Shown piece by piece: positions 44,226 to 52,045 of a stretch of DNA of 64,000 nt (positions are counted from its first letter, which is position 1; each line of letters opens with the position of its first letter). The notes under the pieces were generated by a model. It saw nothing but the letters and a program-made list of their open reading frames with translations, did not search any database and was not told the origin of the DNA. Source of the DNA: Candidatus Obscuribacter phosphatis (lineage in GTDB: Bacteria > Cyanobacteriota > Vampirovibrionia > Obscuribacterales > Obscuribacteraceae); assembly GCA_001899315.1 (NCBI GenBank), contig MOYA01000002.1, positions 469,781 to 533,780 of the forward strand. The letters are read 5' to 3'. The position numbers and the translations under genes were made by a program.

Positions 44226-44473
44226 TGAGTTGCATCCCACTCGCTCCCCGCGCACAAAAGTCTTTTGCCTTTGATTTGCAGAGTAAGTAGGGGTGGGTTG
44301 ATTCACTGGCGAAATCAAGGTCGAGGAGAGACAAAATGAAGGAGACTTTCTAGAGGAAGGCGTTTCCAAATTTTGCCAATTCTCAAATCTATTCCTTCGG
44401 CAGCATCTTCATGTCTTCCAGCCAAAGCTCTGCCAGTTTGGGCCAATTTGAAACAGTCAGAAGTGTCGGTTTG
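44226..44473. repeat. Left copy of a 248-bp direct repeat flanking the Rhs/IS island
   Basis: Matches 50905-51152 over 248 bp without gaps and with about 18 mismatches by hand count (~93% identity). The right copy contains the 3' end of the esterase gene plus ~160 bp downstream of it. The left copy ends about 30 bp before the Rhs reading frame. Confidence 0.93.
44389..44473 (-). pseudogene. 3' fragment of the esterase gene (duplicate)
   Basis: The last ~28 codons of an alpha/beta-hydrolase gene, ending S-N-W-P-K-L-A-E-L-W-L-E-D-M-K-M-L-P-K-E. The intact gene at 51068-52045 has E-I in place of D-M. The fragment has no start or catalytic residues and breaks off exactly where the direct repeat ends. 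Confidence 0.88.
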
Positions 44474-44506
44474 TGGCTTAACTTACCTTGATGGTTAAGC
44501 GATTGA

Positions 44507-47488
44507 TTGCGACCGCGAGATTTAACAAAGTCTGTGCAGCAGGTCACGAACGATGTTATTGCAAACTCTGCCATAACCTACCAGTATGATGCCCTAGGGC
44601 GCACAACAAACCGCTCAATAAACGGGGCCGCAAACTCTGTCACTTGGTCGTATGATGCGATAAGCAGGGTGACTTCCGAGGTCAACGCTCTGGGTACTTT
44701 CAATTATGCCTATGAAAACGACACTCCCGGCTCTTCAAAAGGCTCGGATAGGCTAGCTTCGATCAGTTATCCCAATGGTCAGACCACGAAATATACCTGG
44801 TATCCAAATCTACAAGACCAGCGCTTGCAGCAAATTGCCAACCTGGGACCGTCCGGCAACACAATTTCACAGTTTAGTTACCGATATGACCCAGCCGGGC
44901 AGATAAAGCAATGGCAGCAGCTGCAGGGCAATACAAGCTTGAACTATGCCCTCGACTATGACCAAGCCGGTCAGCTGGTCTCGGCAGCAGCCAGCGGAGG
45001 ACCTTTGAGCCCGAATTATCTGAAGCAATATTATTATGCCTATGATAGCGCCTCAAACAGAACCGGCGTGCAGACAAGCACGGTGACCAGAGGCAGGATT
45101 ACAGGAGCAATTACTGCAGGAAACGTGCTAACAGTCACTGTAACCGACCAAGCACTCACCTCTGGCTCAAAGGCCATAAATTACACTGTCGTGGGCGGCG
45201 ACACGCTTTCGACTATCGCTACCAAAATGGCTGCCGCTATTGCAGCAGATGCCGACATGATAAACATTGGCGTGACCGCATCGGCAAACGCAGCAGTCTT
45301 GAGCATTAAGTCGGCTTCGCCAAATGTCACTTCATACTCTGCCTCTACCAGTGGTGGTGCCACAGCAAGCATTACTTTGAATGCCACCGACAACTTTGTT
45401 GAGAACGCAGTTATCGCAGGCACCAAAAAGACTGGAGATATTCTGACGATAACCTTTAAGGACCCAGCGCTATCTGGCGGCAGTAAAAATGTCAACTACA
45501 CAGTGCTGGCTGCCGATACCCTGACGACAATAGCCACGGCGTTGAGGAACGCCATTAATGCCGACACAGCCTTGCAGGCAATCGGGGTGACGGCGACTTC
45601 AACAGGCACGACCATCACAATCAGGTCTACTTCGCAGAATGCCACAACCTATGCCCAGTCTGTGAGCACTGGATCAACTGAGACCATCAGCCTATCTGTA
45701 AATCAGAATGGACCGGTTAGAATAGGCATTGGTGGCAGCAAGACAACCGGCGATGCGGTCTCTCTAGTCACCTATGATGCAGCGCTGAGCGGCGGCACCA
45801 GAACGACCACATATACTGTGCTTGCTGGCGACACCCTCTCGACGATAGCCAGCGGCTTGGCCGCGGCAATCAATGCCGATACAAACTTGCAAGGCATCGG
45901 AGTATCAGCAGCCGCCAGCGGCACTGTAGTGACAGTGCAGTCAAACTCGACAAACCCGACAACCTATAGAGGCACAACCAGCACAACAGCCACCGAGACA
46001 ATCTTGATTGGCTTGCCGACTAATGGCGCCCAGGTTCTTGTTATCGGAGGCACCAAGACGACCGGCGATACCCTCACAGTCACGGTCTTTGACCCGCAAC
46101 TGAGTGGCGGCTCTAAGGCGGTGAACTATGTTGTGCAGGCGGGCGACACGCTGGCAAGCATCGCGACCAATATGGCGTCGGCAATAACGGCAGACACCGA
46201 CTTGCAAGCGATAGCTGTAGCTGCTACAGCCAGCGGCACGGTCGTTTTCATAAACTCCGGCTCGAAGCTACTGACGACATATGCGTCTTCCACCAGCGGT
46301 GGTGCGACAGAGACTCTGAGCTTAGCTTCGTCCACCAGCGCCAATCAGTATGGTTATAACAATCTCAATGAACTGACCAGCATAGCAGCGGGCGGCGCGA
46401 CAAGATTTGAAGGAACTGCAAACAAGGCTCTGAAGTCAGCCACTGTGAACAGCAATGCTGCGACTTTGCCTGACTCACAGAAGTTTGCAGGGAATGCGAC
46501 ACTGAACAGTGGAGCCAATACCATTCCGGCTAGTGTCACCGATGGTACCAACACGACCAAGACCAGTTCTTACAGAGTGAGTACCAAAGGCTCTGCATCG
46601 AGTAGCCCAACATTTGATGCCAACGGCAATATGACCAGCGATGGCACTAACACTTATGAGTGGGATGCTGAGAATAGGCTGGTGAAGATAAGTTATCCAG
46701 GTGTTAATAATTTTAGCCAATTTTCTTATGATGGACTGAGGCGAAATACCAAAAATATCGAAACAGTTGCTGGTTCTGTCACGAGTGTTAATCAGTTTGT
46801 CTGGGAAGATTTTGAACGTGTCGAGGCTCGTGATGTTTCAGCAAGCCTTACTGCTAGATTTTATGACTTTGGAGAAGTTAGTTCCGGCAGCTCAGAATAT
46901 TACACTACGGATCATCTAGGATCTGTTCGAGAGATGACTAGTACATCAGGCACCATTGACGCACAGTATCAATACCAAGCATGGGGAGAAACACAAAAAA
47001 TCCAAGGAACTGCTAATTCCCGCTATAGTTTTACTGGTCATTATCTTCACAGCAGAAGTGGCTTTATCTTGGCTCCCTTTAGAGCCTATGCTTCGTCAAT
47101 GGCAAGATGGCTCAACAGAGATCCTTTTGAGGAATCGGAAGGACTAAATCTGTACGCGTACTTGGAAAATGATCCGATTGATTTTACTGACGACTTTGGC
47201 CTTGGAAAAGGAAAAGGTGGCGGCAAGGGCGGTGGAAAAGGCGGCTCTGGCTCTAGTCCGTACTGTTATCAGGATGCGTGCTGCTGGCAGCAATATAAAA
47301 GGTGCTATGCTAGGGTAGTAATGGCCTGGGTGTCACTCATGACGATGGGCAAATCTGACGCCCAACACTTCAATCATGCGAGCGGCTGCTGTCGAGAAAG
47401 ACGCTCTGAGTGTAACGGAACTGTAGCTCTGAGAAGGAAATATCCGAAATCACGATTTAATTGTGCAGAAGAATGTCTTTCGGAATAG
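44507..47488 (+). CDS. 5'-truncated Rhs/YD-repeat polymorphic toxin with four inserted repeats
   Basis: A 993-residue Rhs fragment. Y-D-repeats occupy ~20-190 and 612-840 (Y-Q-Y-D-A-L-G-R, F-D-A-N-G-N-M-T-S-D-G). The Rhs core near the C-terminus is intact: Y-Y-T-T-D-H-L-G-S-V-R, then W-L-N-R-D-P and L-N-L-Y-A-Y-L-E-N-D-P-I-D-F-T-D-D-F-G-L. Residues ~195-608 are four tandem repeats of ~103 residues (G-T-K-T-T-G-D-T-L-T-V-T-V...Y-T-V-x-A-G-D-T-L-S-T-I-A). The last 94 residues are a Gly/Lys linker and a nine-cysteine tip with no known domain. It starts at TTG 44507, just after a stop and the end of the direct repeat, with no signal or N-terminal domain; probably a displaced 3' end. Confidence 0.9.
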   Translation: MRPRDLTKSVQQVTNDVIANSAITYQYDALGRTTNRSINGAANSVTWSYDAISRVTSEVNALGTFNYAYENDTPGSSKGSDRLASISYPNGQTTKYTWYPNLQDQRLQQIANLGPSGNTISQFSYRYDPAGQIKQWQQLQGNTSLNYALDYDQAGQLVSAAASGGPLSPNYLKQYYYAYDSASNRTGVQTSTVTRGRITGAITAGNVLTVTVTDQALTSGSKAINYTVVGGDTLSTIATKMAAAIAADADMINIGVTASANAAVLSIKSASPNVTSYSASTSGGATASITLNATDNFVENAVIAGTKKTGDILTITFKDPALSGGSKNVNYTVLAADTLTTIATALRNAINADTALQAIGVTATSTGTTITIRSTSQNATTYAQSVSTGSTETISLSVNQNGPVRIGIGGSKTTGDAVSLVTYDAALSGGTRTTTYTVLAGDTLSTIASGLAAAINADTNLQGIGVSAAASGTVVTVQSNSTNPTTYRGTTSTTATETILIGLPTNGAQVLVIGGTKTTGDTLTVTVFDPQLSGGSKAVNYVVQAGDTLASIATNMASAITADTDLQAIAVAATASGTVVFINSGSKLLTTYASSTSGGATETLSLASSTSANQYGYNNLNELTSIAAGGATRFEGTANKALKSATVNSNAATLPDSQKFAGNATLNSGANTIPASVTDGTNTTKTSSYRVSTKGSASSSPTFDANGNMTSDGTNTYEWDAENRLVKISYPGVNNFSQFSYDGLRRNTKNIETVAGSVTSVNQFVWEDFERVEARDVSASLTARFYDFGEVSSGSSEYYTTDHLGSVREMTSTSGTIDAQYQYQAWGETQKIQGTANSRYSFTGHYLHSRSGFILAPFRAYASSMARWLNRDPFEESEGLNLYAYLENDPIDFTDDFGLGKGKGGGKGGGKGGSGSSPYCYQDACCWQQYKRCYARVVMAWVSLMTMGKSDAQHFNHASGCCRERRSECNGTVALRRKYPKSRFNCAEECLSE

Positions 47489-47493
47489 GCAAT

Positions 47494-48561
47494 ATGTGTA
47501 TGAGCAATGAAGATTCTCTAAGAAGAGTGATAAATTCAAATCGAAAATTTGACGATGCTGCTGCAGAAGAGGCAGAGCGAGCCCTTCTCATAAACTCTTT
47601 TGATTCGGAATTACGCGCTCGACTCTTGTTCTATTATTCAGTAGGGTGTAAAGAGAGCTACCAACAATTTTCTGAAACCAGATTTAAGCACATTTCTTGG
47701 TTCGTTGAAAATGTTCCGGACTCAAAGTTTTGTGGTGACGAGCTATTTTATTTGCCACAAGAAAGTGCGTTTTTCAAGCCTCTAAAGGACATTTGGCTAG
47801 AACAAATTAGCAAGAGCGAAAGTCTTGCGAGGCGCGTAAATGCATTCATGTTTCTGTTGAATGCAAATGATTCCAATATTCATCGGTATTATGAAGAGTT
47901 CTTTCAAAGCAGTAGGCACGATATTTGGGTACTCGCACTAGACGATCTATTGAATGAGAGCTACTCCTGTTTCGATGCCAGAATCGCAATCGAAGCCAAA
48001 AGGCTCAAAAGGCTCAAAAGGCTTGACTGTTGCTCCGAGCCAAACTCTGCGAAAGGAGAAACTCAAAAGTGGCTAAAGGAAGCCGTCGAATTTGAGGCTC
48101 TAGCATCTACTCAGGACTTTGCCGAAATACTTGAAGAATTTTCTGTGAATCCAACTATTTCCTCCATGGTCAAGCTCTCTGGGTATACTGCCAATAGATT
48201 TAACGCAAATTCGATTATCGGATTTGATCCTCAAATGGTGTCCGTTCGACTGGGTCTCGTCGCCTGGATTATCCAAGTATTGCCTAAGTCTATTTTTGCA
48301 AATAATCCATACTTCACGGGACCTTTTTCAGGCCCAATTGATTTCCAAATTTATCCGCGAAATGGAGTAAGTCCGCTCATAAATCCGATCGACTTCCTTT
48401 CGGATTTATGGATTGCGCAACTTCAGAAAAGCCCTGGTGAAAAAGTTCTCGCACGTAATGCGGCATTTTTTTCTAATGGAATTCAGCTATCCACACCATT
48501 GCAAGCCAAAAAAATTTCTGACGAACTAAAAAAAAGACCGCCGTTGGAAAAGATGAGCTGA
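47494..48561 (+). CDS. Candidate Rhs immunity protein
   Basis: A 355-residue, mainly helical, soluble protein with no recognised domain. It starts 6 bp after the Rhs stop (ATG 47494; 47500 also possible), the position normally held by the cognate immunity gene of an Rhs toxin. Base composition is visibly more A/T-rich than the neighbouring housekeeping genes, as often seen for toxin-immunity cassettes. A short K-R-L repeat lies at ~165-175 (9-bp tandem repeat). Immunity function is inferred from position only. Confidence 0.7.
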   Translation: MCMSNEDSLRRVINSNRKFDDAAAEEAERALLINSFDSELRARLLFYYSVGCKESYQQFSETRFKHISWFVENVPDSKFCGDELFYLPQESAFFKPLKDIWLEQISKSESLARRVNAFMFLLNANDSNIHRYYEEFFQSSRHDIWVLALDDLLNESYSCFDARIAIEAKRLKRLKRLDCCSEPNSAKGETQKWLKEAVEFEALASTQDFAEILEEFSVNPTISSMVKLSGYTANRFNANSIIGFDPQMVSVRLGLVAWIIQVLPKSIFANNPYFTGPFSGPIDFQIYPRNGVSPLINPIDFLSDLWIAQLQKSPGEKVLARNAAFFSNGIQLSTPLQAKKISDELKKRPPLEKMS

Positions 48562-48759: not shown

Positions 48760-49043
48760 TGACCCCACCCCCAAAACTTGAACCAAGCCAATCAGACGAC
48801 TGAACAAATTTGAGTCATAGTTTCAATTAGTCAGGAGAAGGTCTAATGAAAAAGAGTAGATTCACTGATGAGCAGATTGTAACCATACTTAGGGAGTCGG
48901 AAACAGGCTCGGCCAACGCCGAGTTTTGCCGCAAACACGGAATCTCCAACAACACGCTTTATAACTGGATAGCTAAATTCGGCGGCATGCAATCTGCTGA
49001 CGTGTGTCCGTTCGGATGGTTGAATATCCCCAAAACCTTCTAA
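48760..49043 (+). mobile_element. IS3-family remnant (left end and start of orfA)
   Basis: TGACCCCACCCCCAAAACTT at 48760 is an IS3-like terminus. It is followed 60 bp later by an AGGAGAAGG ribosome-binding site and the first ~49 codons of orfA. Everything after that, including orfB, is missing, and the expected right end was not found. Confidence 0.7.
48846..49043 (+). pseudogene. Truncated IS3-family transposase OrfA
   Basis: The first ~49 residues match the helix-turn-helix of OrfA: M-K-K-S-R-F-T-D-E-Q-I-V-T-I-L-R-E, C-R-K-H-G-I-S-N-N-T-L-Y-N-W, then F-G-G-M-Q-S-A-D-V. After that point the sequence is unrelated and stops 16 codons later, instead of the K-x-L-x-E-L-E-x-E-N leucine zipper. 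Non-functional. Confidence 0.85.
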
Positions 49044-49316: not shown

Positions 49317-50326
49317 CTATCCAGTTACGATTGCGGTCAAGGCGCCTGCTGGAGCCGGCAGCGGCCGTCTAGACTTGAAGTCGATCTCGAAGTGTCTGCC
49401 TGTCTTGACCACGGCGAACATGATCCTCAGTAGCTTTCGCATGACTGCACCAACAACGACCTTACCAGGTTTTCCCGCAGCCCTCAGTCGATCGGCAAAG
49501 TCGCGCAAGACCGGATTTGTTCGGAGAGCGCAGACTGCCGGCATGTATAGGGCCTTCCGTGTCCGCGCATTCCCGACTTTAGAAATTCGGGGTCTTCCTC
49601 TGACTGATGAGCCGGACTCGAATAGTCGGGGAGTTATTCCGCAGAATACTTCCAATTTTCGGCTGCTGGCAAAGTTACTGGCGGCTGATAATTCTCCCAA
49701 GAATGTCACTGCAGCGGTTTGCCCTAAGCCAATTATGGAGGTTAAGAGATCAGAGTGTCGACGAAGCTTTGGATAGCGCTGGATCAACTCTAATATCTCC
49801 GTCTCCAAAGTCTCAATTTCATTGTCTAAATACTCGATATGCTGCTCAATCGAACGATGCACGAGTTCGTCCAGAACTCCGGATTTTAGTCTGTTTTTTC
49901 TTGGGTTCGATGCTCCGTGAGCTCTTCTACATATCGCTGCATGTCGCGAATAGCCTTTATCTCCGGAGGAGGAGGAACCCAAGCCATGGGCGTTTGCGCA
50001 CGACTAAAGCGAGCAATTATTTTGGCATCAATCTTGTCTGTTTTCGAACGCCTCATGTCACTTTGAGCAAAGCCCCTTATTCGAGCTGGATTCACAACGC
50101 TAACGACAAATTTTTCTGCATGCAAGAAGTCTGCAAGAGGCTCCCAAAGCCGCCCGGTGCCCTCCATACACACATGAACTGCCTTTGCATCATGCTCAGC
50201 CAGCCAACCCACCAACTCCCGGAACCCGTCGTATGAGTTGCCGAAGGTTCTCTGTGGGGTTTTGCTGTCTAACAGCAGGCATGCATCGAATTTGGTCTTA
50301 GAAATATCAATTCTAAGCTGGTACAT
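49317..50326 (-). pseudogene. Frameshifted IS110-family transposase
   Basis: IS110 transposase split in two frames. The N-terminal DEDD/RuvC-like part (50326 to ~49900) has L-R-I-D-I-S-K-T-K-F-D-A, C-M-E-G-T-G-R-L-W-E-P-L and K-T-D-K-I-D-A-K-I-I-A. The C-terminal transposase_20 part has L-T-S-I-I-G-L-G-Q-T-A-A-V-T-F-L-G-E-L, F-C-G-I-T-P-R and S-K-V-G-N-A-R-T-R-K-A-L-Y. The frames meet at a six-base T run (A6 in the gene) at 49894-49899; one extra A would restore a continuous protein of ~336 residues. Either a one-base deletion or a homopolymer sequencing error. GTP-like terminal repeats are not expected in this family. Confidence 0.9.
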
Positions 50327-50904: not shown

Positions 50905-51152
50905 TGAGTTGCATGTCACTCGATCCCCGCGCACAAAAGTCTTTTGCCTTTGATTTGCAGAGTAAGTGGGGGTGGGTTGATTCACTGGCGAAATCAAAGT
51001 CGTGGAGAGACAAGATGAAAGAGACTTTCTAAAGGACGGCGTTTACAAATTTTGCTAGTTCTCAAATCTATTCCTTCGGCAGCATCTTAATTTCTTCCAG
51101 CCAAAGCTCTGCCAGTTTGGGCCAATTTGAAATAGGCAAAAGTGTCGGTTTG
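50905..51152. repeat. Right copy of the 248-bp direct repeat
   Basis: Partner of 44226-44473, with the same length and orientation. It spans the last ~28 codons of the esterase gene and ~160 bp beyond its stop. The distance between copies is 6679 bp. Confidence 0.93.
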
Positions 51153-52045
51153 ATGCCGAAGGCGTGCTTGCCTTTGGCAAAGATATGCAGTTCAGCAGAG
51201 ACTTTTGCCTCTTTCAAAGCAGCAAAATAGACCAGTGAATTGTCCACGGCATCAACTGGATCGTCTGCTGCCTGCACAATGAAAGTGGGCGGCGTGTTCT
51301 TTGTTACGGGCACATATTTGTTTAGTTCAAACTTCTTGGTGCTGTGTTCGGTTAAGTGCCCTGGATATACCGCTATAGCAAAGTCAGGGCGACAACTGAC
51401 TTTGTCTATGGCATCGATTGGCTTATAGATATTTCTCTCATAGAGCGTGCTTGTGGCGGCGACAAGATGGCCTCCAGCTGAAAAACCGAGAACCCCTATT
51501 TTATGAGGATCTATTTTGAGCTCTTTCGCCCGCGAGCGCACTAGCCTTATCGTTCTTTGAGCGTCATCTAGGGCGGCTGCGTGGGACGGATAGCAGCCAG
51601 AGCGCGGATAGAGTTTGTCGCCCGGCACCCGGTATTTCAAGAGAATGCAGGTGATGCCTTGACTAGTGAGCCAGTCACAGACATCGGTGCCTTCCAATTT
51701 CATAGCCAGGCACCAATAGCCCCCGCCTGGAAAGATAATCACAGCGGTGTCGGTAGGCTTGCCTTTTGGCGGGTAAACGGTCATTGTCGGAACTGAGACT
51801 TTGCCAACAAATTCTCCTTCTTTGTTTAGCTCTTCCGGACCGGCTATTTTAAAGGCATCTGGAATTTGACCGGACCAGATTGGACATTGCTTAAATTCAG
51901 GGGCTGGCTGCCACTGCCCTGTATGCCATTGCGATTCATCTCTCTTTTCTGCTGCAAAACTTATCGGTGCTGCCGCCGTGAACATGTAAATTGAAAGAGC
52001 AAATGTGCTGCAAAGTTTGCGCCTTAGTTGTGCAGAATACTGCAA
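51068..52045 (-). CDS. Exported alpha/beta-hydrolase (acetyl-esterase/BD-FAE-like)
   Basis: Predicted exported esterase of 325 residues. Signal peptide ~1-31 (STFALSIYMFTAAAPISFAA). Alpha/beta-hydrolase features: oxyanion P-G-G-G-Y-W, nucleophile elbow G-F-S-A-G-G, catalytic Asp in A-A-D-D-P-V-D and His in G-K-H-A-F-G. The pattern is that of acetyl-xylan-esterase/BD-FAE-like enzymes, which deacetylate polysaccharides or small esters; exact substrate unknown. TTG 52045 has AGGAG at 7 nt. Its 3' end and downstream sequence are duplicated at 44226, marking the right edge of the island. Confidence 0.9.
   Translation of the reverse strand: MQYSAQLRRKLCSTFALSIYMFTAAAPISFAAEKRDESQWHTGQWQPAPEFKQCPIWSGQIPDAFKIAGPEELNKEGEFVGKVSVPTMTVYPPKGKPTDTAVIIFPGGGYWCLAMKLEGTDVCDWLTSQGITCILLKYRVPGDKLYPRSGCYPSHAAALDDAQRTIRLVRSRAKELKIDPHKIGVLGFSAGGHLVAATSTLYERNIYKPIDAIDKVSCRPDFAIAVYPGHLTEHSTKKFELNKYVPVTKNTPPTFIVQAADDPVDAVDNSLVYFAALKEAKVSAELHIFAKGKHAFGIKPTLLPISNWPKLAELWLEEIKMLPKE

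What the first reader, a model, noticed from the sequence alone, without database searches (positions are those of the whole stretch)
45089..46330. Four ~103-residue tandem repeats inserted inside an Rhs shell
Y-D repeats stop at about residue 190 (N-R-T-G-V-Q) and resume at ~612 (Q-Y-G-Y-N-N-L-N-E-L-T), as if continuous. Between them are four repeats with G-T-K-T-T-G-D-T-L-T-V-T-V and Y-T-V-x-A-G-D-T-L-S-T-I-A-x-x-x-A-x-A-I-N-A-D-T. The repeats look beta/alpha and are not YD repeats. A domain array projecting from an Rhs cocoon could serve adhesion or receptor binding; I do not know a described case.
Basis: partly seen in the sequence, partly recalled or inferred. Interest (0 to 1): 0.6.

Follow-up and report, generated by a model that had tools for sequence, protein, structure and literature searches.

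The report
Phage-tail-type domain array in Rhs shell
A giant bacterial shell protein of the Rhs toxin-carrier type has four copies of a domain otherwise seen in phage tails spliced into its wall; related proteins carry none to ten copies at several fixed wall loops, which suggests a modular surface that could grip other cells.

Summary
ORF 44507-47488 (+, 993 aa) has Rhs/YD sequence interrupted by four tandem repeats of exactly 105 aa (residues 191-610). The ORF is not a complete Rhs protein. It is a 5'-truncated copy of three full-length paralogues (2373-2465 aa) in the same Candidatus Obscuribacterales genome. Those carry seven repeats in three clusters (2+1+4). In the family, inserted lengths come in multiples of about 105 aa at several fixed positions, with 0-10 copies per protein. 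At this site homologues have 0, 1, 4 or 5 copies, and four shells of about 1330 aa have none. The insertions are therefore real, old and under purifying selection (dN/dS about 0.06). One repeat folds with high confidence (pLDDT 94) as a 3-beta/alpha/4-beta domain. It matches additional domains of contractile phage tail sheaths (PhiTE TM 0.69; cyanophage A-1(L) 30% identity). The LysM match covers little beyond the YTVxxGDTLxxIA segment. The arrays are too bulky for known Rhs cavities, so they most likely sit outside the shell, as do the inserted domains of mosquito SGS1. An adhesion role is inferred, not shown. The model of the 993-aa protein failed, so array-to-shell geometry is untested.

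The parts
44507..47488 (+). 5'-truncated Rhs/YD ORF (993 aa), array-bearing; homologous DNA to the full-length paralogue L009 runs 44535-46702
44535..45070 (+). YD shell segment before the array (ends YYYAYDSASNRTGVQ)
   Evidence: RHS_repeat PF05593 5.6e-10; shell homologues
45077..45391 (+). repeat 1 (residues 191-295)
45392..45706 (+). repeat 2 (residues 296-400)
45707..46021 (+). repeat 3 (residues 401-505)
46022..46336 (+). repeat 4 (residues 506-610); AF2 model pLDDT 93.9
46346..46465 (+). YD shell resumes (YGYNNLNELTS...NKALKSATVN); its end is insertion site 4, empty here, filled by 104/207/319 aa in relatives
46406..46582 (+). weak Ig-like (Glucodextran_B) match, residues 634-692, below the Pfam cut-off
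   Evidence: E 0.0042
46973..47203 (+). RHS-associated core domain (residues 823-899)
   Evidence: TIGR03696 3.5e-19
47204..47488 (+). C-terminal tip, about 95 aa, differs from the tips of the three paralogues
47461..48561 (+). downstream ORF (366 aa) distantly related to the ORFs downstream of two paralogues; candidate tip-associated/immunity gene
   Evidence: 25-26% identity, E 3e-6 and 7e-4

Best explanation
The four repeats are independent domains of the phage tail-sheath/tail-nozzle additional-domain type. They were inserted as an array into a loop of the YD-repeat shell of a large secreted Rhs protein of Obscuribacterales. Shown: they are separate insertions in an otherwise continuous shell; they occur in whole-unit numbers at several loops; they are conserved and under purifying selection; one repeat is predicted to fold on its own. 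Inferred: the domains sit outside the shell, because they are too bulky for known cavities and inserted YD-shell domains in SGS1 lie outside. Inferred with less certainty: the arrays work as a multivalent surface that attaches the cocoon to another cell or to extracellular polysaccharide and brings the variable C-terminal tip into contact. Inferred: the window copy lacks an export signal and half of the shell, so it is a silent or orphan cassette, and the full-length paralogues are the working versions.
For: Empty-site homologues L094-L097 (1329-1342 aa, 0 repeats). Inserted lengths: s1 about 200, s2 about 100, s3 110/425/532, s4 104/207/319 aa. A 207-aa insert at a precise junction in L041 where the window has none. 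Position-specific clustering of repeats across the family. dN/dS 0.05-0.07 in the array, like the shell. AF2 model of one repeat, pLDDT 93.9, pTM 0.85. Foldseek PDB hits: PhiTE sheath E 4.7e-4, TM 0.69; A-1(L) sheath 30% identity; viral library hits to sheath, tail tubular protein B and virion proteins. phrog_165 tail sheath matches 7 of 7 repeats. PDB 9cb9 sheath profile hit 9.5e-6 over 77 columns. Array mass 41 kDa (about 50,000 cubic A) and 75 kDa for seven repeats, against a 44,000 cubic A cavity in a bacterial teneurin-like shell (PMC13018210). Inserted domains decorate the outside of the YD shell in SGS1 (PMC9935623). Additional sheath domains are proposed to aid adhesion (PMC9230969).
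Against: The only model of the array with shell has pLDDT 41, so outward projection is not shown. No ligand-binding site or conserved surface was identified; conserved columns look structural. No expression, export or binding data. The cavity comparison borrows a shell from another protein.
Confidence: 0.55

Rival explanations
1. The repeats are rigid spacers or stabilisers of the shell (or a domain that spread with little adaptive effect); copy number has no receptor meaning.
For: Conserved columns look structural (G, Y, V, I, A positions). The same module occurs in unrelated secreted proteins of these bacteria (L074-L076, L080). The s3 array is four copies in most homologues, as expected of a structural element. 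Stabilisation is also proposed for sheath additional domains (PMC9230969).
Against: Shells with no repeats at all exist, so they are not needed for a shell. Purifying selection as strong as on the shell argues against a neutral insert.
Confidence: 0.3
2. The repeats are LysM domains that bind peptidoglycan or chitin-like glycans.
For: Pfam LysM 2.3e-10 over the whole protein; 5 of 7 repeats match LysM weakly; LysM structures appear in profile searches.
Against: Most LysM matches cover about 16-35 residues around YTVxxGDTLxxIA, whereas the sheath match covers about 77. No LysM structure is among the 50 listed Foldseek hits. The predicted fold is a 105-aa 3-beta/alpha/4-beta domain.
Confidence: 0.08
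3. The repeats line the lumen or form part of the shell wall, for example enlarging the cavity.
For: No confident model of array plus shell is available.
Against: A single repeat is predicted to fold on its own. Seven to ten repeats (75 kDa and more) exceed the known cavity volume. Array-free shells are complete in sequence.
Confidence: 0.07

Closest known systems
Mosquito SGS1 (salivary Rhs/YD cocoon, PMC9935623)
   Same: Domains inserted into the YD-repeat sequence and displayed on the outside of the shell; two of them are Ig-like, putative carbohydrate-binding domains.
   Different: One copy of each of several different domains, in an insect. Here one domain type in tandem arrays at several loops, with copy number varying between bacterial homologues.
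Additional domains of contractile phage tail sheath proteins (PhiTE, cyanophage A-1(L)); T7-type tail tubular protein B
   Same: Fold over the full 105 aa (TM 0.64-0.69 for sheath; 25-30% identity) and sequence profile.
   Different: Here in tandem arrays, in a secreted Rhs protein, with no sheath core.
Bacterial teneurin-like proteins (PMC13018210) and Rhs polymorphic toxins
   Same: YD shell, RHS core, variable C-terminal tip, gene immediately downstream, extra domains in a putatively surface-exposed protein.
   Different: In the teneurin-like proteins adhesion domains are described N-terminal to the superfold; here they interrupt the shell. The N-terminal region here matches Peptidase_C39.
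Orphan rhs cassettes / C-terminal displacement (PMC3967940, PMC2935791)
   Same: Truncated copy with its own tip in a genome with full-length paralogues with different tips.
   Different: No evidence here of recombination in progress or of expression. The papers were found by title and abstract, not read in full.

Membership tests
Rhs/YD-repeat proteins | YD (RHS) repeats | tested here: met
   PF05593 5.6e-10 (window ORF), 1.2e-39 (full-length L009)
Rhs/YD-repeat proteins | RHS-associated core domain followed by a variable tip | tested here: met
   TIGR03696 3.5e-19; four paralogues with different tips
Rhs/YD-repeat proteins | Complete N-terminal part with a delivery or export signal | tested here: not met
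   Absent in the window ORF (truncated; homology to L009 starts at 44535). Present by eye in the paralogues (K-rich start, hydrophobic stretch, ALA); no signal-peptide predictor was run
Rhs/YD-repeat proteins | Autocleavage motif DPxG at the end of the core | tested here: inconclusive
   Window reads DDFG, paralogues DPDG, DPLG and DQLG; cleavage cannot be tested
Phage tail-sheath/nozzle additional domain (domain level) | Fold over the full domain length | tested here: met
   Foldseek: PhiTE sheath TM 0.69, prob 1.00; A-1(L) sheath TM 0.65, 30% identity
Phage tail-sheath/nozzle additional domain (domain level) | Sequence-profile similarity | tested here: met
   phrog_165 matches 7/7 repeats, best single-repeat E 1.1e-4, 3.9e-8 for the array; PDB 9cb9 9.5e-6
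Phage tail sheath protein (whole protein) | Conserved sheath core | tested here: not met
   No sheath core family in Pfam for the window ORF or L009
LysM | Match over the whole ~43-residue domain, each repeat above the curated cut-off | tested here: not met
   Repeat 1 scores 17.2 against a cut-off of 20.9 over 16 residues; the best stretch of the whole protein (repeat 4) does cover profile 1-40, but most profile matches stop after the first strand and helix
LysM | LysM fold | tested here: not met
   Predicted fold is larger; no LysM among the 50 listed PDB hits. A LysM-like strand-helix-helix-strand core inside the larger fold was not excluded by coordinates

The most novel reading that the evidence does not exclude
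A family of bacterial Rhs cocoons whose outside is equipped, at several fixed shell loops, with whole-number arrays of a phage-tail-type domain, so that reach or target range is tuned by the number and place of array units.
Probability: 0.25. Interest if true: 0.7.

Novelty: new variant of a known kind. Interest (0 to 1): 0.52.

Why it matters
Rhs proteins are usually described as a shell with a changeable C-terminal cargo. Here the shell itself is also modular: the same domain is added in whole units at several loops, with natural array-free and array-bearing versions for comparison. That gives a direct way to ask how Rhs cocoons find targets, which is open for those without a known delivery machine. 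It also warns that automatic LysM labels on such proteins are probably misleading.

Tried and rejected
Structure of the whole 993-aa ORF: only three sequences were admissible for the alignment; pLDDT 41, shell not modelled, not used for geometry. LysM membership: rejected. Titin and Ecp6 hits in PDB: Titin matches are weak, repeat-driven similarity; Ecp6 reflects the LysM motif. Shiga StxB model hit in NCBIfam (E 0.03-0.07): far below cut-off, chance. Direct tblastn of the array in phage and plasmid records: no match, so the phage link rests on profiles and fold. Degenerate-pattern scan with the single-repeat alignment failed for lack of conserved stretches. FHA-like proteins L065/L066 matched weakly and are probably low-complexity matches; not counted. 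Paper searches found no described Rhs protein with such arrays in the held library.

Full report
WHAT IS THERE. The ORF at 44507-47488 (+, TTG start, 993 aa) begins and ends as an Rhs protein: RHS_repeat PF05593 5.6e-10 and RHS-associated core TIGR03696 3.5e-19 at residues 823-899. Between residues 191 and 610 (45077-46336) lie four repeats of exactly 105 aa. Pairwise scores are 19-32 SD above shuffled controls. No tandem repeat is seen at DNA level, so the copies are old.

THE WINDOW ORF IS A TRUNCATED COPY. The same genome has three full-length paralogues of 2373, 2427 and 2465 aa. DNA homology of the window copy to L009 starts at 44535 and ends at 46702 (94% identity). Upstream, the export signal and the N-terminal half are missing; downstream, core and tip differ. 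L009 starts with a signal-like sequence (by eye) and has a Peptidase_C39 match at 234-351 (2.5e-9). L009, L010 and L011 each carry seven repeats as 2+1+4. ORFs downstream of the window copy, L009 and L010 are distantly related to each other, as expected of tip-associated genes; an immunity role is inferred. Relatives named by a contig scan are Candidatus Obscuribacterales/Melainabacteria.

THE REPEATS ARE INSERTIONS. Site 3, the finding's site: 425 aa/4 copies in about 19 distinct proteins, 532 aa/5 in L059, 110 aa/1 in L061. It is empty in L060 (read by eye) and in L094-L097, shells of 1329-1342 aa with no repeats anywhere, where the YD motif ...DxASNRTxxx and the next one, xxYNxxNEL, are about 10 residues apart. 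Site 4: 1 aa (window, own paralogues and others), 104, 207 or 319 aa elsewhere. Site 2: 0 or about 100 aa. Site 1: 0-22 or about 200 aa. L060 has further units at two other loops. Copies per complete protein range from 0 to 10. L041 and L042 are the same contigs as L048 and L058 and are counted once.

AGE AND SELECTION. In a tree of 183 repeats the copies cluster by position (43 changes against 132 in shuffles; 18 s3_2 copies form one supported group, 97/95), although 105 columns leave many forks open. The array thus probably arose before these genera split. dN/dS between paralogues is 0.05-0.07 in the array and 0.01-0.09 in the shell parts. Of 99 genomes searched (own included) 33 have the array domain; none of the 46 genomes of the same class but other orders do. 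In 386 genomes of the phylum only two outside matches appeared, in secreted-looking proteins with two such units (L100, L101).

WHAT THE DOMAIN IS. AlphaFold2 on repeat 4 with 16 aligned repeats gives pLDDT 93.9 and pTM 0.85: three strands, a helix pair, four strands. Best PDB matches: phage PhiTE tail sheath (E 4.7e-4, TM 0.69, 28% identity) and cyanophage A-1(L) sheath (TM 0.65, 30%), with weaker matches to T7-type nozzle proteins. The viral library gives sheath, tail tubular protein B and unnamed virion proteins. Sequence profiles agree, and a viral contig (L093) with a portal gene encodes a 261-aa protein with a 38% identical copy. The LysM hit reflects mainly one strand and one helix. The fold link does not show direction of transfer; descent from a phage is possible, not shown.

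HOW IT LIKELY WORKS. The four-repeat array is 41 kDa, about 50,000 cubic angstroms, and seven repeats about 90,000. The cavity of a bacterial teneurin-like shell is about 44,000 (PMC13018210). In SGS1 four domains inserted in the YD sequence sit on the outside of the shell (PMC9935623). Additional domains of sheaths lie away from the tube and have been proposed to help adhesion or stability (PMC9230969). Most likely, then, the arrays stand out from the shell and provide multivalent attachment. The attachment step is inference; spacing or stabilisation is the main rival.

LIMITS. The model of the whole ORF failed (pLDDT 41). Exit side of the loops, ligand, export and expression are untested. 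Several homologues come from fragmented metagenome assemblies, and a few contigs end inside the arrays.

Noticed in passing
44400-44473 and 51079-51152: A 74-bp direct repeat (93% identical) flanks the truncated rhs copy and its neighbours; the second copy overlaps the 3' end of ORF 51068-52045 (-). May mark an insertion or duplication boundary.
   Followed up: partly
48760-49003: A roughly 240-bp dispersed element with at least eight further copies, some partial, in the genome at 80-92% identity, MITE-like.
   Followed up: no
49317-50326: Two overlapping minus-strand ORFs that look like a split IS110-type transposase (by eye, no family search).
   Followed up: no
44487-44534: A 48-bp stretch just before the homologous part of the truncated ORF matches DNA about 1.8 kb upstream of the full-length paralogue L009, in the same orientation as the gene.
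   Followed up: partly
L074 6281-8095, L080 6851-8683: Secreted-looking proteins with HExxH-type motifs (HETGHH, HELGHQ) and two or three copies of the same domain: another setting of the module.
   Followed up: partly
L064, L068-L073: A second type of Rhs protein in these genomes (L068 with a weak transglutaminase-like N-terminal match) carries one copy of the domain ahead of the YD region.
   Followed up: partly
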